Shown here: positions 816 to 52,049 of the stretch, one piece after another
How the letters are laid out: every line of letters starts with the position of its first letter
Position numbering within the stretch: the first letter of the stretch is position 1
Assembly: GCF_038003085.1 (NCBI RefSeq)
Contig: NZ_JBBOOM010000001.1
Location: 3,782,001 to 3,846,000 of the forward strand
Source: Psychrobacillus sp. FSL K6-2836
GTDB taxonomy: Bacteria > Bacillota > Bacilli > Bacillales_A > Planococcaceae
Length of the DNA stretch: 64,000 bases
Reading direction: 5' to 3'
Notes under the pieces: model-generated
Databases searched by the model: none
What the model was told of the DNA's origin: nothing
What the model saw: the letters and a program-made list of their open reading frames with translations, nothing else
Position numbers and translations under genes: made by a program

Positions 816-1103
816 ATGATGACGAATGTTATTCTTATTTTCATATTAATCATGTCGATAATCGCTTTTTTTGTAATGGGATACGATAAATCACAAGCAA
901 GAAAACATGGACAGCGCATATCGGAAAAAACACTATGGACACTTGCGATTGTAGGAGGGGGAATAGGGGCATACATCGGTATGCAAATGTTTCGCCATAA
1001 AACGAAGCATACGAACTTTCGTGTTGGATTTTTAATGCTATTGATATTATATGCTTTCTTAATTTTCTACATATTAACAACAGACAGCTCTATTATTGCA
1101 TAG
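816..1103 (+). CDS. ysdA: DUF1294 membrane protein (YsdA type)
   Basis: A 95-residue protein with hydrophobic segments at about residues 2-20 and 70-90, and the loop GYDKSQARKHGQRISEKTLW typical of DUF1294. The later part, GGGIGAYIGMQMFRHKTKH, is also characteristic. The function is unknown. The frame is open upstream, but the AAGGAG site at 804-809 fits the ATG at 816 (or the next one at 819). Its place after rplT matches B. subtilis ysdA. A multi-copy repeat begins about 25 bases after the stop. Confidence 0.85.
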   Translation: MMTNVILIFILIMSIIAFFVMGYDKSQARKHGQRISEKTLWTLAIVGGGIGAYIGMQMFRHKTKHTNFRVGFLMLLILYAFLIFYILTTDSSIIA

Positions 1104-1126
1104 GGATGTCTTTTTTTAGAGATAGG

Positions 1127-1690
1127 AAAGTGTATAAAAATGATCTGTGAACACTGGATTTGCAGCACTTTTAAAAATGAATAATATGACTGATTTCCGT
1201 TTCAGGTGGATGCTTTCCGTGGCCGTTGCCTCAGCCTCTTCGAGCGGAAAACATATGCTCATGCGATTACTCGTCGCAAAGATATTACCCAAACAAAGTT
1301 TGGCCAATGTCTTCGCTGCGGGGTCTTCACCTAACGCTTTTCCCACTGGAGTCGCCACCTTGCACTACCATCAATTATGTGAGTAGTCCCAATTATTAGA
1401 TTTGGCAAAGCGTATTGCTTAGATATTAAGATTAGTACAAGTTCGAGAGTTTTCTCTATAAATAGGACAGTAGCTTTTCTCTAGTTATCCAAAACCGCAC
1501 TTACCTGTTTTTAAGAGTTGTAGGAGGGCGACAGATAGACAAACGCCATAAGATTACCGAAAAAAAGATGCTAGTTGGTTGTGACGGACGTCACAACCAA
1601 TAGCATCTCTAAAAATTCACTCGGTAATCATATAGCAAACATGTCTGTCCAAAGCCCTTCGAAAAGGATAGAAACAGGTTTTAAAGTATT
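1127..1690. repeat. Composite intergenic repeat, copy 1 (modules A, truncated B, C)
   Basis: The whole 590-base gap between ysdA and cdd is one copy of a composite repeat. Module A runs from about 1127 to 1435. It has a left arm (AAAGTGTATAAAAATG, then TGATTTCCGTTTCAGGTGGA), a fold-back centre including a hairpin at about 1281-1312 around CCAAACAAAGTTTGG, and a right arm with GGAGTCGCCACC. A shortened module B follows, then module C from about 1480 to 1690. Related copies occur near 13.0-13.7, 31.5-32.2, 42.4-42.9 and 47.0-47.6 kb. Short open frames here exist only because the repeat lacks stops, and they have no ribosome binding site. Confidence 0.85.
1503..1679 (-). terminator. Module C nested fold-back, copy 1; ends in a terminator for cdd
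   Basis: Four nested pairings can be seen: ACCTGTTT (1503-1510) with AAACAGGT (1672-1679); GACAGA (1530-1535) with TCTGTC (1644-1649); GATTACCGA (1552-1560) with TCGGTAATC (1621-1629); and an apical hairpin at 1567-1607 (GATGCTA arm with TAGCATC arm plus the GGTTGTGACG core). On the minus strand the apical hairpin is followed by TTTTTTTCGG, so it can act as an intrinsic terminator for cdd, whose stop is only a few bases away. Structure is seen; termination is inferred. Confidence 0.7.
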
Positions 1691-12877: not shown

Positions 12878-12920
12878 AATCCATTTTGGTGAATCTATTT
12901 TACAAAATGGATTTTATTTT
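12878..12920 (+). terminator. Intrinsic terminator of the exporter/esterase operon
   Basis: An 11-bp perfect stem (AATCCATTTTG at 12878-12888 with CAAAATGGATT at 12903-12913), then a T-rich tail. Confidence 0.85.
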
Positions 12921-12969
12921 AAAAAGAGATGTTTTTTCGGAGTGTAAAGTACAACGGGTTTTAAAAGAT

Positions 12970-13697
12970 AAGAAAGTATAAAAAAATGTGGCATGAACAC
13001 TGGGTTCATGATACTTTAAGGAATGAATAATGCTAGTGATTTCCGTTACAGGTGGACGCGTTCTAGCTGAGCGAGGCCGAGCCTCCCCGGACCAGTACAA
13101 TGCTGGTTACGAATCGTCGACACATGCTGTAGATTTCTTGACCTTCATTCCTAATAACCACTACCTGCGGGGTCTCGACTTTCTCGCTTATCCCGCTGGA
13201 GTCGCCACCTGTAACGAAAATCAATCAGTGAGTAGTACTCCACTAGGATATTTGGTCTAGCTTATCGCTTAGATGATAAGATTGGTCAAATTTTAGAGAG
13301 TAATTAAATTATTTGTAATCGCTTTTGAATTAGAAATGCGATTATCCAATGGTCGAGGAAGAAAGCAAATTTTCTTTTATCCTAGTGGAAATAAAGAGAA
13401 GTAGTAAGTGTTTGCCCCATAAAGAAGCGAAATAGCGAACGAAATTGCATCTTCGAGAGCTTCCTCTATCCTCTATGTATAGGAAATTAGCTTTTCTCTA
13501 GTTATCCAGAAACGCACTAACTTGTTTCTAAGAGTTGCAGGAGGGCGACGGACAGGCAAACGCCATAAGATTATCGAAAAAAAGGGATATTGGTTGTGAC
13601 GTCAGTCACAACCAATATCCCTAAAAATTCCCTCGGTAATCATATAGTAAAATGTCTGTCCAAAGCATTTCGGAAACGATAGAAACAGGTTTTGACC
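12970..13697. repeat. Composite intergenic repeat, copy 2 (modules A, B, C complete)
   Basis: This is the fullest copy of the composite. Module A (about 12970-13290) has the left arm AAAGTATAAAAAAATGTGGC, then GTTACAGGTGGACGCG, a variable centre with a hairpin (ACCAG/CTGGT), and the right arm CCCGCTGGAGTCGCCACC. Module B (about 13330-13490) contains AACGAAATTGCATCTTCGAG. Module C (about 13505-13697) carries AAGAGTTGCAGGAGGGCGAC. It fills the gap between the esterase and argF except for the argF promoter region. No gene is seen. Confidence 0.88.
13519..13691. repeat. Module C nested fold-back, copy 2
   Basis: The nested arms are AACTTGTTTC (13519-13528) with GAAACAGGTT (13682-13691), GGACAG (13550-13555) with CTGTCC (13656-13661), and GATTATCGA (13569-13577) with TCGGTAATC (13633-13641, one G-U). 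The apex is a perfect 17-bp hairpin of GGGATATTGG plus TTGTGAC (13584-13600) with its complement (13605-13621). Compared with copy 1 the apical stem base is GGGATA instead of GATGCTA, with the partner strand changed to match. On the minus strand the apex is followed by a T-run. Confidence 0.8.
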
Positions 13698-13832
13698 TTA
13701 AAGGACCGGGCATCTTTTTGCGCGGTTTTTCTTATTTTAATTTATTGTTAGTAGAGAAAAAATCTTATCAAGTATTACTTATGACTTAAAATAATAATGT
13801 GTTTTATGTTTATTTAGTGTATATAAATCCAC

Positions 13833-13900: not shown

Positions 13901-14866
13901 ATGAAGTTACTTGAATGGGTGAATTTAAAAGTAGTGGATAGTTTAAAGGGGAAAGACTTATTGACACTTTTAGATTACTCAAAGGAGGAGGTAAGCGACT
14001 TAATACAGTTGGCTGTTGATTTGAAGACGCTAACGAAAGCTGGAAAATGTCCTCCTTTACTTGAAGGGAAAACGTTAGGGATGATTTTTGAAAAACATTC
14101 AACACGTACAAGAATTTCCTTTGAAGTAGGTATGAAGCAATTAGGTGGTAATGGCATGTTCATGAATGCGCGTGATTTACAAATCGGTCGCGGTGAATCT
14201 GTCTACGACACTGGGCATGTATTATCTGGTTATTTAGATGGAATCATGATCCGTGCAAATTCACATGAAATGGTTAAAGAGCTTGCCGAGCATGCTAGTA
14301 TTCCTGTGATTAATGGATTAACAGATATTTATCATCCATGCCAAGCACTTGCAGACATTTTAACGATTCATGAAGTGAAGGGATATACGTCTGGACTGAA
14401 GCTAGCATATATAGGTGATGGAAATAATGTTGCGCATTCACTAGTTATAGCAGCTGCCTATATGGGGATGCATATTTCCGTAGCAACTCCAGTTGGCTAT
14501 GAAGCTAATACACAAATAATAGAAAAAGCTAAATCAATTGCACTAGCAAATGGTGGCTCTCTGTTCGTTTCTAATGATCCTGTTGAAGCTGCTGTAAATG
14601 CAGACGTTGTGTATACAGATGTATGGACGTCAATGGGTCAAGAAGAGGAAACAGCTAAACGACTTGCTGATTTTAAAGATTTCCAAATTAATGAGGAGCT
14701 AGTTGCAAATGCAAAAGATGATTATATGTTTTTACATTGCTTACCAGCCCATCGTGAAGAAGAGGTTGCAAGCACTGTAATTGATGGTACGAACTCGTAC
14801 ATTTTCCAACAAGCAGAAAATCGCTTGCATGCACAAAAAGCGGTGCTTGCATCAGTCATGGCTTAA
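13901..14866 (+). CDS. argF: Ornithine carbamoyltransferase
   Basis: A 321-residue enzyme making citrulline from ornithine and carbamoyl phosphate. The carbamoyl-phosphate loop is STRTR in KHSTRTRISFE, the second motif is HPCQALAD, and the ornithine loop with the catalytic Cys is HCLPAHR. An N-terminal extension of about 12 residues precedes the usual start LKGKDLLTLLDY, but the GGAG site fits the ATG used. It stands alone, without other arg or arc genes, so whether it serves synthesis or breakdown of arginine cannot be told from context. Confidence 0.96.
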   Translation: MKLLEWVNLKVVDSLKGKDLLTLLDYSKEEVSDLIQLAVDLKTLTKAGKCPPLLEGKTLGMIFEKHSTRTRISFEVGMKQLGGNGMFMNARDLQIGRGESVYDTGHVLSGYLDGIMIRANSHEMVKELAEHASIPVINGLTDIYHPCQALADILTIHEVKGYTSGLKLAYIGDGNNVAHSLVIAAAYMGMHISVATPVGYEANTQIIEKAKSIALANGGSLFVSNDPVEAAVNADVVYTDVWTSMGQEEETAKRLADFKDFQINEELVANAKDDYMFLHCLPAHREEEVASTVIDGTNSYIFQQAENRLHAQKAVLASVMA

Positions 14867-17954: not shown

Positions 17955-18216
17955 ATTTGATAGATAAAAGCTGTAATCGGGAAAAGTATATATGATCATT
18001 CGAAATAGAGGGATTTTACACCTTGACTGAAAGTGTAAATGGAGAATGCATATAGAAGTTCACCCCGTTAGCTGCCACCGGGACCAGCAATTGCTGTAAA
18101 GGTGTGCCGGTGTAGAGCCGTTAGTCGAATTGAGTGATTGCACTTATTTTTGTGCAATAATCAGGGTGGTACCGCGAAATTAGTCCTCGTCCCTTTTATA
18201 GGGGCGGGGATTTTTT
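17955..18216 (+). promoter_or_regulatory. T-box riboswitch for phenylalanyl-tRNA, with terminator
   Basis: The leader contains stem I with a TTC specifier codon at 18059-18061 (phenylalanine) and the conserved T-box AGGGTGGTACCGCG at 18163-18176. The terminator has arms TCCTCGTCCC (18184-18193) and GGGGCGGGGA (18201-18210) and ends in TTTTTT. Uncharged tRNA-Phe pairs with the specifier and with the TGGT bulge to stabilise the antiterminator, so pheST is read when phenylalanine is short. The specifier matches the downstream gene. Confidence 0.95.
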
Positions 18217-30943: not shown

Positions 30944-31486
30944 ATGTTAGATATAATTATATTAATATTACTTGTGGGTGGCTTAATAACTGGCGCAAAG
31001 CGCGGGTTGATTGTTCAACTTCTCCACATGACTGGTTTTATTATTGCATTAGTAGTAGCTTACTCTTATTATAAACCACTTGCAGATAAATTTGTTTTAT
31101 GGATTCCATTTCCAGCTGTAACTGCTGGTTCTAAATTGACAATTGCGGTAGAAAGTTTAGATTTAGCTCAAACATTTTATCGAATTATTGCCTTTGCGCT
31201 TATTTTTATAGTGGTGAAATTTGCCTTACAAATGATTGCATCTATGTTTGACTTTTTAAAGTATTTACCTGTTTTGGGATTTGTAAGCAATATTATGGGT
31301 GCAATCTTAGGACTTATCGAATTTTATTTTATTTTATTTGTATTACTTTATGTATTTGCTCTTTTACCAATTGATTTTATCCAAAATTTAATGTCAGGTT
31401 CAATATTAACCGAATGGATGTTAGATCATACGCCAATCCTATCGGAAATGGTTAAAAATTGGTGGTATATTTATATTGAAAAATAA
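30944..31486 (+). CDS. cvpA: CvpA family membrane protein
   Basis: A 180-residue protein with four membrane segments and the CvpA hallmark GLITGAKRGLIVQLLHMTGF near its N-terminus. Members were first linked to colicin V production; the role in Firmicutes is not settled. It is translated just after zapA, and its stop codon overlaps the stem of an intrinsic terminator. Confidence 0.92.
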   Translation: MLDIIILILLVGGLITGAKRGLIVQLLHMTGFIIALVVAYSYYKPLADKFVLWIPFPAVTAGSKLTIAVESLDLAQTFYRIIAFALIFIVVKFALQMIASMFDFLKYLPVLGFVSNIMGAILGLIEFYFILFVLLYVFALLPIDFIQNLMSGSILTEWMLDHTPILSEMVKNWWYIYIEK

Positions 31487-31513
31487 CTTCTCTCGGTAGA
31501 GGGAAGTTTTTTT
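31485..31513 (+). terminator. Intrinsic terminator of zapA-cvpA
   Basis: AACTTCTCTC pairs with GAGGGAAGTT (one G-U) around GGTA, then TTTTTTT. It separates zapA-cvpA from polX-mutS2. Confidence 0.9.
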
Positions 31514-31524
31514 GAAAGGTTAAG

Positions 31525-31905
31525 AAAGTATATAATAATGTAGCGTGTCAACTGGGTTCACGGAACTTTTAAGAATGAATAATCCTGATGATTTCCGTTA
31601 CATGTGGAGAACAAAGGCTAAGTGCGCCACGTCCTGTGGCAAAGCCTTTGTGACCAACATCCTGTTGGCCTCCGCGGGCGAGGCCGAGCCTCCTCGTTGA
31701 AAACATATGCTCCTACGGTTACTCGTCGCAAAGACATTGACCAAATAAAGTTTGGCCAATGTCTTCGCTACGCTACCAGCGGGATCTCGACTTTCTCGCT
31801 CATCCCGCTGGAGTCGCCACATTCCACTACAATCAATATAAGGAGTAGTACTCCACTAGGTGATTTGGCAAAACACATTGCTTAGATGATAAGATTTCCC
31901 TTAGT
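31525..31905 (+). repeat. Module A copy 3
   Basis: A long module A. It has the left arm AAAGTATATAATAATGTAGC and TGATTTCCGTTACATGTGGA. The expanded centre carries several hairpins: CCAACATCCTGTTGG, and GACATTG with CAATGTC at 31733-31763. The right arm is CCCGCTGGAGTCGCCACATT, then GAGTAGTACTCCACTAGG and ATTGCTTAGATGATAAGATT. No modules B or C follow. The hairpin around CCAAAtaaagTTTGG is shared with copy 1. Confidence 0.82.
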
Positions 31906-42384: not shown

Positions 42385-42862
42385 ATATATAAATACAGCA
42401 TGAATACTGGTTTACAGAACTTATAAGAATGAATAATACTACCGATTTCCGTTCCAGGCGGACGCTTTCCGCGGGGTGAGCGATGAGCCATCACCGTCGC
42501 TTGCGCGTCGATGTGACGTCTCATCTGTCTCACTCATCCCGCTGGAGTCGACGCCTTTCACTACAATCAATATAATGTGTAGTACTCCACTTTAAGATAT
42601 AGCAAAGCCTATCGCTTAGATGATAAGTGTAGTCAAAGTTAATATGGTGATAAAACCATCTGCCGTTTAGGGGGCTGGTTCTGTCATGAAGGATGAAGAA
42701 AGTAGATTTACTTTTATACTAGTGGAATAAGAAAAATAGTAAGTGCTTACTAAAGAAAGTAGGGAAAGAGCGAACGAAATTGCATCTTCGAGAGCTTCCT
42801 TTATGAATAGGAAAGTTGTCGTTTCTCTGGAGCGGAAAGCGTCCGCCTGAAGCAGAAATCAA
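42385..42862. repeat. Composite repeat copy (modules A and B, then a minimal A)
   Basis: Module A lies at about 42385-42635. Its core at 42457-42555 folds into one long imperfect hairpin with five nested stems: GGCG/CGCC, GCGGG/CCCGC, GTGAG/CTCAC, GATGAG/CTCATC and TCAC/GTGA. Module B follows at about 42690-42825 (AACGAAATTGCATCTTCGAG again). Module C is absent; instead a minimal module A end (GGAGCGGAAAGCGTCCGCC) sits at 42829-42862. This occupies most of the 790-base gap before trxA. Confidence 0.83.
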
Positions 42863-45312: not shown

Positions 45313-45491
45313 AAGTGAAGATAGAGGTGCGATTAGACATCAGTACTCAGCAGGAGGAAGGAAAGTTCCTAGAATGGCTGAGGAAAGGGTTTTTCGCCGA
45401 AACATAGAATAGCTTTTCCTATTTTATTGTTGGTTCTGCATTTAATAGATGTAGGATTGTCAGAATTTATATTCTGGAGGGCTATCTCACA
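45313..45491 (+). promoter_or_regulatory. Lysine riboswitch (L-box)
   Basis: The aptamer is bounded by GTGAAGATAG (45315-45324) and CTATCTCAC (45482-45490), which form P1. Inside are the L-box landmarks AGATAGAGGTGCGA, GTACTCAGCAGGAGGAAGG and a GGAGGGCTATCTCAC end. When lysine binds, the downstream terminator forms and lysC is shut off. The expected gene follows. Confidence 0.93.
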
Positions 45492-45521
45492 TGGGCAGAT
45501 TTTTTGGACCGTGTATGAGAC

Positions 45522-45555: not shown

Positions 45556-45737
45556 ATCCTTTCAGTAAAGAGAAACTTCAATTGATGGGGATTTTCTTCA
45601 TTCCCTATTATGTTAGTTGAACCATTCGGGCTTTAACGGGCAGTTGATTTCCCACATAGGCCATTGTACATTGTGGATTCGTTGAAGTGGGAGTCTCACT
45701 GCACGTGAAAGCGGGACAAAAAAGGGAGCGGATATAC

Positions 45738-46970
45738 ATGACTAAAATTGTAATGAAGTTTGGCGGTACTTCAGTTGAATCAACAGAAAAAATTTCAAAT
45801 GTTGCTAATCGGGTGAAACGTGAAAAAGAAAAAGGAAATGATATTGTCGTTGTTGTATCTGCAATGGGTAAAACAACAGATGAATTAGCAAACCTTGCTT
45901 TCGGATTAGCGGAATCACCATCCAAACGAGAAATGGACATGCTTTTATCGAATGGTGAGCAGGTTACGATGGCATTACTAGCTATTAAGTTAAATGCAAT
46001 TGGGATAGATGCCATCTCTCTAACTGGTGCTCAGGCAGGTCTCATAACAGATAATGTACATAGAAATGCAAAAGTACTAAAACTGGATCCTTCTAAAATT
46101 GACGGTTTACTTGCCACAAATAAAGTAGTTATTGTAGCGGGTTTCCAGGGGATAACAGAAGCTGGAGAGATTACTACTCTTGGCAGAGGAGGATCTGATA
46201 CAACTGCTGTAGCTATTGCTGCTTCCATCGGAGCTGAGATTTGCGACATTTATACGGATGTTGATGGTATTTATACATCCGATCCACGTTATATTGAGAA
46301 TGCTCGAAAACTTGACCAACTTGAATATGACGAAATGCTTGAACTAGCTAACTTAGGCGCAGGGGTATTACATCCACGTGCTGTTGAATTTGCTAAAAAC
46401 TATAAGGTTCCATTACGAGTACGCTCAAGCTATAAAGATGGAGAAGGAACGATTTTGAAGGAGGAAGTAGATGTGGAAAATAATTTAGTAGTTCGTGGGG
46501 TAGCGTTTGAATCCGATATCGTTCGATTAACTATAGAATATGAGGTGCCATTTAATGGCTCTTTAGCTTCTATTTTCACAACTCTAGCTACAAACCATAT
46601 AAACGTGGATATAATTGTTCAGTCGATAGTTGATGGAGTGAAGCCAGCAGTTTCTTTTTCTATAAAAAAAGAATCTCTGGCTGAAGCGATAACAGTTTTA
46701 GAAACACATAAACAAACGCTTGGCTTTACCTTCGCAGATTTTGAAGTAGGTCTTTCAAAGGTTTCTATTGTAGGTTCTGGTATGGTTTCGAACCCAGGTG
46801 TTGCAGCTCAAATGTTTGATCGCCTGAGAACAGAGAATATTCCTGTGAAAATGGTAAGTACATCTGAGATAAAAGTGTCTGTTGTAGTACCTCAGCAACA
46901 TATGATTGAAGCCGCAAATGCCTTGCATGACGAATTCGATCTTGCGTTAACCCATCAATCGGTACAATAA
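45738..46970 (+). CDS. lysC: Aspartokinase, lysine-sensitive type
   Basis: A 410-residue enzyme making aspartyl phosphate for lysine, threonine, methionine and diaminopimelate (cell wall and spore cortex). The kinase domain carries KFGGTSVES and TTLGRGGSDTTAVAIAA, and two ACT domains (about 265-400) bind effectors. In B. subtilis this gene also makes a smaller beta subunit from an internal start. AGGGAGCGG supports the ATG used; the longer open frame overlaps the leader. It is under the lysine riboswitch. Confidence 0.96.
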   Translation: MTKIVMKFGGTSVESTEKISNVANRVKREKEKGNDIVVVVSAMGKTTDELANLAFGLAESPSKREMDMLLSNGEQVTMALLAIKLNAIGIDAISLTGAQAGLITDNVHRNAKVLKLDPSKIDGLLATNKVVIVAGFQGITEAGEITTLGRGGSDTTAVAIAASIGAEICDIYTDVDGIYTSDPRYIENARKLDQLEYDEMLELANLGAGVLHPRAVEFAKNYKVPLRVRSSYKDGEGTILKEEVDVENNLVVRGVAFESDIVRLTIEYEVPFNGSLASIFTTLATNHINVDIIVQSIVDGVKPAVSFSIKKESLAEAITVLETHKQTLGFTFADFEVGLSKVSIVGSGMVSNPGVAAQMFDRLRTENIPVKMVSTSEIKVSVVVPQQHMIEAANALHDEFDLALTHQSVQ

Positions 46971-47029
46971 TTTATAGTTTAAAGTAACGATGAAATTAAA
47001 CTATCTCAAATAAAATCAAATTGATTTTT

Positions 47030-47071
47030 AAAGAGGTCGATTGTGACGCAGTCACGATCAGCCTCTTTTTT
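47030..47071 (+). terminator. Module C apical hairpin acting as lysC terminator
   Basis: AAAGAGG and a GATTGTGACG core pair with GTCACGATC and CCTCTTT, followed by a T-run. It lies 60 bases after the lysC stop. The sequence beyond it (TTATGGCGTTAGTCTGCCCG, GTCGCCCTCC) is module C read on the other strand, so the terminator is the apex of a truncated repeat copy whose outer arm has been lost on the lysC side. Confidence 0.75.
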
Positions 47072-47600
47072 CTATGGTAATTTTATGGCGTTAGTCTGCC
47101 CGTCGCCCTCCTATAACTCTTAGAAAGAGGTTAGTGCGTTTTTGGATAACTAGAGAAAAGATGCTTTCCTAATCATAGAGTAAGCGCCAGAAGATACAAT
47201 TTCTGGCGCTATTTGGCTTCTTTTGGGTAAACACTTACTATTTCTCTTTATTTCCACTAGTATTAAGAAAAATCTATTTCCTTTATCCATCATTAAAATA
47301 ATTGCATCTCATTAACTAAAACTAATTCTATTTTCATAATCATAACCAATGCTAAATCTAATATTGAGTACTACACACTATATTGATTATAGTTAAAGGG
47401 CGACTTCGGCGGGATGAGGGAGACAGATGAGTTATCACAGCGACGCGTTGAGCTGTGGTGATAGCTCATCGCTTCCCCTGCGGAAAGCGTCCACTTGTTT
47501 CTTCATCGCTACGCTAGCTTCGAAACATGAAAGTGGGTTGAAACTGAAATCAGTAGTATCTTTCATTAATGATAGTAATTTTGAAGAACATTTTTATATA
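47030..47600 (-). repeat. Composite intergenic repeat, inverted copy (modules C, B, A)
   Basis: Reading the minus strand gives the same order A-B-C as copies 1 and 2. Module A covers about 47600-47345, with a strong apical hairpin in which GATGAG, TATCAC and CTCATC take part. Module B (about 47300-47150) contains a perfect 10-bp hairpin AGCGCCAGAA / TTCTGGCGCT (47183-47210). Module C, lacking one outer arm, is at 47150-47030. It fills the whole 680-base gap between lysC and yslB. No gene is seen. Confidence 0.83.
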
Positions 47601-47611
47601 CGCTTATCTAT

Positions 47612-51546: not shown

Positions 51547-51716
51547 TAGAAATGCGTAATCGCGCCTATGGAGGTATACAGTCTAAGTATGCGACATCGT
51601 GTCGCAACGACTGTATGACCCGCCTCCTGCGGGCCTCCGACAAGTAAATGGGAAGATTTGCAGTCCAACTTGTTGGAAGGAAAAGATTTACATTTAACCT
51701 CGAGGGGCAACGTTTT
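51547..51716. repeat. Hairpin cluster after sdhB
   Basis: ATACAGTC (51576-51583) pairs with GACTGTAT (51609-51616) around an inner GCGACA/TGTCGC stem, followed by CCCGC/GCGGG (51620-51634). No T-run follows, so these are not classic terminators. The hairpins could protect the 3' end of sdh mRNA. No gene is seen. Confidence 0.6.
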
Positions 51717-51925
51717 TCTGCGACGAGCTTTGCGCAGGAGCAATATATTTTTTTCTGCGACGAGCTTTGCGCAGGAGCAATATGTTTTTTTCTGCGACGA
51801 GCTTTTGCGCAGGAGCAAAATGTTTTTTTCTGCGACGAGCTTTGCGCAGGAGCAATATGTTTTTCTGCGACGAGCTTTGCGCAGGAGCAATATGTTTTTC
51901 TGCGACGAGCTTTGCGCAGGAGCAA
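51717..51925. repeat. Six-unit tandem array of a 35-38-base fold-back unit
   Basis: Units start at 51717, 51754, 51791, 51829, 51864 and 51899. Each has the core TCTGCGACGAGCTTTGCGC then AGGAGCAA, with a CTGCG/CGCAG stem, joined by a short TATGTTTTTT spacer. The same unit occurs once inside module A copy 4 (TTTGCGACGAGCTTGCG at 32117) and as a variant in copies 1 and 3. Frames on both strands stay open through the array and give a low-complexity product; they are not genes. Confidence 0.92.
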
Positions 51926-52049
51926 GGCGTTGAAGCTAGACAATAGATGCTATAAGAAGATCTGTGTAGAATATTATTATTCTATGCAGATTTTTTCTTT
52001 CTCTGTTACAATAAATGAATATCTATTCATTTTAGGGGGAGCTTAATTT

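What the first reader, a model, noticed from the sequence alone, without database searches (positions are those of the whole stretch)
1503..1679. Module C: nested inverted repeat with compensatory changes between copies
Module C occurs at 1503-1679, 13519-13691 and, shortened, 47030-47150 (inverted). The first two copies have the same four nested stems. The apical stem base is GATGCTA/TAGCATC in copy 1, GGGATA/TATCCC in copy 2 and AAGAGG/CCTCTT in copy 3, so both strands changed together. The GATTACCGA/TCGGTAATC stem has one G-U in copy 2. In-between sequence such as AGGAGGGCGAC and CAAACGCCATAA is strongly kept. Paired change with fixed single-stranded parts is what one expects of a selected structure, either an RNA or a folded mobile DNA element. 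I know of no described family that fits.
Basis: seen in the sequence. Interest (0 to 1): 0.75.

Follow-up and report, generated by a model that had tools for sequence, protein, structure and literature searches.

The report
Structured hairpin inside dispersed mobile repeats
The repeated hairpin is real: it is a roughly 175-base fold, conserved by matching changes across three related bacterial genera, that sits near the 3' end of gene-free mobile repeats; about ninety copies are scattered through this Psychrobacillus genome, with a strong tendency to lie just behind the stop signals of genes.

Summary
Module C is the near-3' domain of a modular, gene-free repeat of about 175-1000 bp (constant 5' module A, optional B/D/C, constant 3' terminator T). 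A covariance model finds about 90 separate copies in this Psychrobacillus genome and copies in all 18 other congeners searched. In two other genera of the family it finds relatives of very different sequence but the same fold; no other genus in the order had a hit. Across the three genera 20 of 31 pairs show double compensatory changes (102 cells; shuffles 34, slid controls 10-20). Rfam has no match.

In one sister genus (g3), C lies near one end of a true MITE: inverted ends of about 19-24 bp, perfect 9-bp target duplications in 10 of 16 copies, random orientation to genes. In Psychrobacillus the vehicle differs: no duplication detected, the upstream gene co-oriented in 39/43, and an intrinsic terminator within 60 nt upstream in 25/43 (random windows 15/600). 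Older copies lose pairing and orthologous sites decay, so selection probably acts on source copies, not on each insert.

Best reading: a structured domain, probably RNA, carried by non-autonomous mobile elements of two kinds. The mobilising enzyme and the role of C are not shown.

The parts
1121..1683 (+). Element copy 1: module A, B/D-type middle, module C; the 3' terminator module T is missing (sequence runs into the minus-strand ORF 1695-2102)
1082..1117 (+). Hairpin plus T-run directly upstream of copy 1 (host terminator-like)
   Evidence: L001: AGACAGCTCTATTATTGCATAGGGATGTCTTTTTTT
1497..1683 (+). Module C, copy 1: nested hairpin
12967..13734 (+). Element copy 2, full length (A + B + D + C + T), upstream of the 13901-14866 ORF; absent at the same place in P. 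psychrotolerans
12880..12920 (+). Hairpin plus T-rich run about 50 nt upstream of copy 2
   Evidence: sequence
12959..13056 (+). Module A of copy 2 (constant 5' module with hairpin; preceded by GATAAGAAAGTATATAAAAAT-like start)
13514..13694 (+). Module C, copy 2
13683..13734 (+). Module T of copy 2: GAAACAGGTTTTGACC + intrinsic terminator, ends TTTTTCTTA
47020..47608 (-). Element copy 3, 3'-truncated; reads from 47608 down, behind a hairpin/T-run at 47660-47616 on the minus strand
   Evidence: sequence GATAAGCGTATATAAAAATGT on the minus strand
46959..47137 (-). Module C remnant, copy 3 (66 bits); only the apical hairpin keeps both arms
31511..31900 (+). Related element without module C: A behind a terminator-like hairpin (31486-31513), then B and the start of D; right end approximate
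42409..42860 (+). Related element without module C: A-, B- and D-like stretches; ends approximate
   Evidence: families D4, D5, D7, D10, D11

Best explanation
Module C is a conserved structured domain, most likely acting as RNA, carried near the 3' end of non-autonomous mobile repeats. Shown: the fold is kept by compensatory change across three genera; the repeats are dispersed and carry no gene of their own; in one sister genus (g3) the carrier is a TIR-bounded MITE with 9-bp target duplications; in Psychrobacillus the carrier has constant ends A and T, ends in its own intrinsic terminator, and is strongly enriched just behind the terminators of genes in the same orientation. Inferred: an enzyme acting in trans moves the element; insertion behind a terminator together with its own terminator makes it nearly harmless; selection acts on C in the source copies that keep spreading, while inserted copies decay. 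The most likely role of C is to be transcribed as a long rod with conserved internal loops that is bound by a protein of the mobilising or host RNA machinery; this last step is a guess.
For: About 90 separate copies in the own genome (139 raw matches, many of them the opposite strand of the same hairpin). 25-sequence, three-genus alignment: 95.7% of cells paired, 20/31 pairs double-changed, 0/500 shuffles as high. g3: inverted ends; mean 7.44 of 9 flank bases identical, permutation mean 3.26, maximum 4.81; 10 of 16 perfect 9-bp duplications. Psychrobacillus: terminator in the 60 nt upstream in 25/43 versus 15/600 random, 0/43 at -260, 1/43 downstream; upstream gene co-oriented 39/43, downstream gene 23:20. 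A + T copies without C, of about 175-270 bp, exist (L254, L255, L260, L264). A new copy lies directly behind another copy's terminator (L005, L029, L249). G-U far exceeds A-C in stems of the 26 best copies (84:13, unpaired control 55:39). Sites orthologous to own copies are decayed, reduced to remnants or without the element in P. psychrotolerans; the orthologue pair L011/L084 diverges in C about as in its flanks, by eye.
Against: No autonomous partner was found: no reverse transcriptase, Y1 transposase or IS110 locus examined carries module C; Y1, RT and IS110 loci show no A...T ends, and no pair of g3 TIRs 1-3 kb apart was seen in the G220 list. No target duplication is detectable in Psychrobacillus, so how it moves there is unknown. 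The G-U bias weakens with the structure used (p = 0.035 in the 26 best copies, 0.054 in g3, 0.15 in the rest), copies are not independent, and top-strand DNA would give a similar bias. Terminator adjacency could partly reflect which insertions survive. The terminator scan is my own simple script and finds no hairpin above its threshold for 18 of 43 copies.
Confidence: 0.68

Rival explanations
1. Single-stranded DNA reading: C is a hairpin of the top DNA strand needed for transposition by an IS200/RAYT-like Y1 enzyme; ends A and T each carry a hairpin, as in IS200/IS605 elements, and no target duplication is made.
For: 18 of 19 Psychrobacillus genomes hold a Y1 transposase of about 200 aa, and the element-rich species form their own clade of it on a long branch. 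Hairpins near both ends, no target duplication, one fixed orientation.
Against: The own Y1 protein scores 50.7 bits for RAYT, below the cut-off of 80; no element next to its gene in 26 of 27 Y1 loci, own genome included; in g3 the same fold rides a TIR/9-bp-duplication MITE that needs no internal hairpin; C is dispensable, since A + T copies exist. The clade pattern is confounded with species phylogeny.
Confidence: 0.25
2. C is a host-useful RNA (small RNA or 3'-end stabiliser) kept at many individual sites by selection.
For: Placement behind co-oriented genes; strong fold; presence in all 19 Psychrobacillus genomes searched.
Against: Fast turnover between P. psychrotolerans and the own genome, orthologue drift, weaker pairing constraint in older copies, random orientation to genes in g3.
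Confidence: 0.12
3. Retroelement reading: a terminator-ended RNA copied back behind terminators by a group IIC-type reverse transcriptase, SINE-like.
For: Target resembles that of group IIC introns (PMC4424553); the element's 3' end coincides with its own terminator.
Against: No group II domain match in Rfam; reverse transcriptase numbers do not follow element numbers (G012: 4 RT, 4 elements; G007: 1 weak RT, at least 63 matches); no C in RT loci; in g3 the carrier moves as DNA.
Confidence: 0.07
4. No selection: the copies are old repeats whose pairing is inherited from one ancestor.
For: Copies decay and are mosaics of each other.
Against: Compensatory changes across genera far exceed shuffled and slid controls.
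Confidence: 0.03

Closest known systems
[quoted passage not shown] MITEAba12 with 9-bp target duplications (PMC6382973)
   Same: Gene-free, dispersed, intergenic; in genus g3 the carrier has inverted ends and 9-bp target duplications.
   Different: Carries a 175-nt internal fold kept by covariation across genera; the Psychrobacillus carrier shows no target duplication and only a very short inverted match of its ends (TAAGAAA/TTTCTTA).
Pneumococcal BOX / RUP / SPRITE repeats (PMC3049150)
   Same: Modular architecture with constant ends and optional middle units, predicted RNA fold; SPRITE resembles a terminator.
   Different: Unrelated by origin as far as tested; here the element itself ends in a terminator and lies behind terminators with fixed orientation. 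[quoted passage not shown] here about 92% of chromosomal copies (81 of 88) run with replication.
REP/RAYT systems (PMC3733652)
   Same: Palindromic repeats plus a Y1 transposase gene elsewhere in the genome.
   Different: REPs are 20-40 bp, GTAG-tagged and often next to the RAYT gene; none of this holds here.
Group IIC introns (PMC4424553)
   Same: Target: intrinsic terminators.
   Different: No ribozyme domains, no reverse transcriptase, own terminator at the 3' end.

Membership tests
MITE | Terminal inverted repeats | tested here: inconclusive
   Met in genus g3 (CACGYCTGTTGATTAACCA at both ends). Not met in the host of this window: Psychrobacillus copies share only TAAGAAA/TTTCTTA at their ends.
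MITE | Target-site duplication | tested here: inconclusive
   g3: 9 bp, perfect in 10/16. Psychrobacillus: shared end k-mers no more than in permuted pairs.
MITE | No coding capacity, many copies | tested here: met
   the 14-codon frame in module A is not conserved.
MITE | Autonomous IS with the same ends | tested here: inconclusive
   None found among Y1, RT and IS110 loci of Psychrobacillus or among TIR pairs of G220; other transposase families were not searched.
REP/RAYT | RAYT gene flanked by the repeats | tested here: not met
REP/RAYT | RAYT protein above family cut-off | tested here: not met
   50.7 bits against a cut-off of 80
Group IIC intron | Group II ribozyme domains | tested here: not met
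   No Rfam group II match
Group IIC intron | Insertion at intrinsic terminators | tested here: met
   (enrichment; 25 of 43 copies)
IS110 / bridge RNA | IS110 transposase linked to the structured RNA | tested here: not met
   No module C in 30 IS110 loci; element-rich G007 and G014 have no IS110 hit
Known Rfam family | Match at gathering score | tested here: not met
Structured RNA | Covariation beyond shuffled and slid controls | tested here: met
   (R-scape itself not available)
Structured RNA | Transcription of the structured strand | not testable with these tools
   No RNA-seq on hand

The most novel reading that the evidence does not exclude
C is the RNA part of a mobilising or targeting ribonucleoprotein that two different kinds of non-autonomous bacterial elements share, and in Psychrobacillus it directs insertion to the DNA just behind intrinsic transcription terminators.
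Probability: 0.07. Interest if true: 0.9.

Novelty: new variant of a known kind. Interest (0 to 1): 0.6.

Why it matters
If right, gene-free bacterial repeats can carry a structured domain that is selected at the level of the element and occurs in carriers with different ends and different insertion habits. That would make testable whether such repeats are only parasites of transposases or encode working RNAs. The terminator-behind-terminator habit would be a way for a repeat to spread with little harm to its host, and the roughly ninety natural copies per genome are a ready set for RNA structure work.

Tried and rejected
Coding: the 14-codon frame ATGTCCCGTGAACAC...TAA in module A is broken in many copies. 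IS3-like transposase in elements L249/L250 as autonomous partner: it is a secondary insertion in the B hairpin. Group IIC intron: no ribozyme, RT counts do not follow. RAYT: not linked. IS110: not linked. Target duplication in Psychrobacillus: none detected. Plasmid and phage collections: no match for the own or the g3 version. Replication-strand targeting: 81 of 88 chromosomal copies run with replication, but orientation follows the upstream gene, so I do not claim a separate strand effect; I did not measure the gene-orientation baseline of the whole genome. Literature on terminator-targeting repeats: nothing matching found in the held library.

Full report
Observation. Both long copies of module C fold into the same nested rod, at -77.9 and -76.9 kcal/mol, at 1497-1683 and 13514-13694. 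The third copy on the minus strand is cut on its 3' side and keeps only the apical hairpin with both arms.

Extent. A covariance model built from 26 copies reports 139 matches in the 4.54 Mb genome; after removing matches to the opposite strand of the same hairpin about 90-100 places remain, 90 of which I collected. All 18 other genomes of the genus have matches. A DNA pattern from the most conserved stretch names the genus: Psychrobacillus; G014 is P. psychrotolerans DSM 11706, because its contig of 979195 bases is the named record NZ_FOXU01000001.1. A second model built over three genera hits, in 261 genomes of the order, only Psychrobacillus (19 of 19), unnamed genus g3 (11 genomes) and unnamed genus g27 (7 genomes). 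Nothing in the plasmid and phage collections or in Rfam.

The element. C is one module of a composite. Constant parts are a 5' module A of about 100 nt, which begins GATAAGAAAGTATATAAAAAT and holds a hairpin GTCCCGTGAAC/GTTCATGGGAC, and a 3' module T of about 55 nt, GAAACAGGTTTTGACCTTAAAGG followed by an intrinsic terminator and TTTTTCTTA. Between them lie optional B, D and C. Copies with A and T but without C exist and are only about 175-270 bp long (L254, L255, L260, L264). Copies are mosaics: stretches of one copy are 94-96% identical to different partners.

Covariation. Among 26 Psychrobacillus copies 9 pairs and 31 cells changed on both sides with pairing kept (shuffles 4.5 and 10.3; slid controls 6-12 cells). 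In 25 sequences from three genera 20 of 31 pairs and 102 cells did so (shuffles 10.4 and 33.7; slid controls 10-20 cells; 0 of 500 shuffles as high in any measure). Conserved stretches include GCGACGGA opposite TCCAAAGC, and the A-run beside the apical hairpin. This is strong evidence for selection on the fold, with the reservation that R-scape was not available and that the structure was derived from the same alignment.

RNA or DNA. In the 26 best copies G-U outnumbers A-C at paired sites 84 to 13, against 55 to 39 for the same classes of change at unpaired sites. With a structure predicted afresh the contrast is smaller (86:23 against 54:29, p = 0.035; g3 107:51 against 99:75, p = 0.054; remaining older copies 183:86 against 288:173, p = 0.15). 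This favours a fold of the plus strand; RNA is the simpler reading, but single-stranded DNA of that strand is not excluded, and cells are not independent.

Where it sits in Psychrobacillus. For 43 copies with a recognisable 5' end, a simple scan finds an intrinsic terminator in the 60 nt before the element in 25; random windows give 15 of 600, the region around -260 gives 0 of 43, the downstream flank 1 of 43 on either strand. The hairpin foot is mostly 2-13 nt before the element. The upstream gene points towards the element in 39 of 43; the downstream gene is 23 to 20. Some copies lie directly behind the terminator of another copy (L005, L029, L249). Comparison with P. psychrotolerans at seven syntenic places shows one decayed copy (L010), two sites with remnants (L002, L124) and four without a recognisable element; copy 2 of the window is also absent there. 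No target duplication: shared k-mers at the two ends equal permuted pairs.

Where it sits in g3. There C lies about 35 nt from the right end of elements of 410-820 bp with inverted ends CACGYCTGTTGATTAACCA. Of 16 copies with both ends found, 10 have a perfect 9-bp target duplication (for example ATATATAAG, TTATGATTG, TCCGCATGG); mean identity 7.44 of 9 against 3.26 in permuted pairs. Orientation to the upstream gene is 9 to 7. By the usual criteria that carrier is a MITE of a cut-and-paste (DDE-type) transposase; the transposase was not found.

What moves it in Psychrobacillus. Candidates were tested by linkage. Y1 transposase: present in 18 of 19 genomes as a gene of about 200 aa, own copy at C1:1067 kb, RAYT-like but below cut-off, no element beside it. 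Reverse transcriptases: numbers do not follow element numbers. IS110: absent from element-rich G007 and G014. None of 66 such loci holds module C. The Y1 enzyme remains the most economical suspect (no target duplication, hairpins near both ends, fixed orientation), at about one in four.

Selection on copies. Older copies pair less well. The orthologous pair L011/L084 differs in C about as much as in its flanks, and one change deletes two bases of the apical stem (one pair, judged by eye). So the fold is probably maintained in the copies that spread, not at each site.

Conclusion. Known kind: non-autonomous mobile repeats. New in detail: a cross-genus, covariation-supported domain in two carriers of different end type, and a terminator-ended element found behind terminators. 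Function of C and the mobiliser in Psychrobacillus are open. Whether C moved between carriers or one carrier changed its ends is also open.

Noticed in passing
window 31602-31668 and 51567-51633: Rfam Bacillaceae-1 RNA (RF01690) matches; the first lies inside a related A/B element, so that Rfam family may overlap this group of repeats.
   Followed up: partly
window 51692-51934: Six head-to-tail copies of a 35-38 bp unit (TTTGCGCAGGAGCAATATGTTTTTCTGCGACGAGC) just after the second Bacillaceae-1 match.
   Followed up: no
L249 and L250 (C1:1497.7-1500.4 kb and 1744.7-1747.3 kb): An IS with two overlapping frames of IS3/IS150 type (identified by eye) sits in the B hairpin of two element copies, on the opposite strand.
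   Followed up: partly
L355, L356, L365, L374 (G012, G018) about 1177-1339: IS110 genes in these genomes are preceded by B-like repeat sequence ending at nearly the same base, as if that IS110 targets the B repeat.
   Followed up: no
L285:1468-2067 and relatives: Y1 (RAYT-like) gene, mostly single-copy, in 18 of 19 Psychrobacillus genomes; the clade of G000, G004, G006, G007, G008, G014 is on a long branch. G002 has no Y1 hit and only weak element matches.
   Followed up: partly
L025, L129 (contig C4, 70 kb): Two module C copies on a small contig, possibly a plasmid.
   Followed up: no
L304: A g3 MITE copy interrupts a terminator-like hairpin (AACTCCGCATGG / TCCGCATGGGCT...CCTGCGGAGTTTGTTT).
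   Followed up: no
L303 (G110, genus g27): A 66-nt stretch upstream of module C is an inverted, 80% identical partner of a stretch downstream; the carrier type in g27 was not determined.
   Followed up: no
window 45314-45492 and 17964-18197: Lysine riboswitch upstream of the 45687-46970 ORF (lysC-like) and a T-box leader; ordinary.
   Followed up: no
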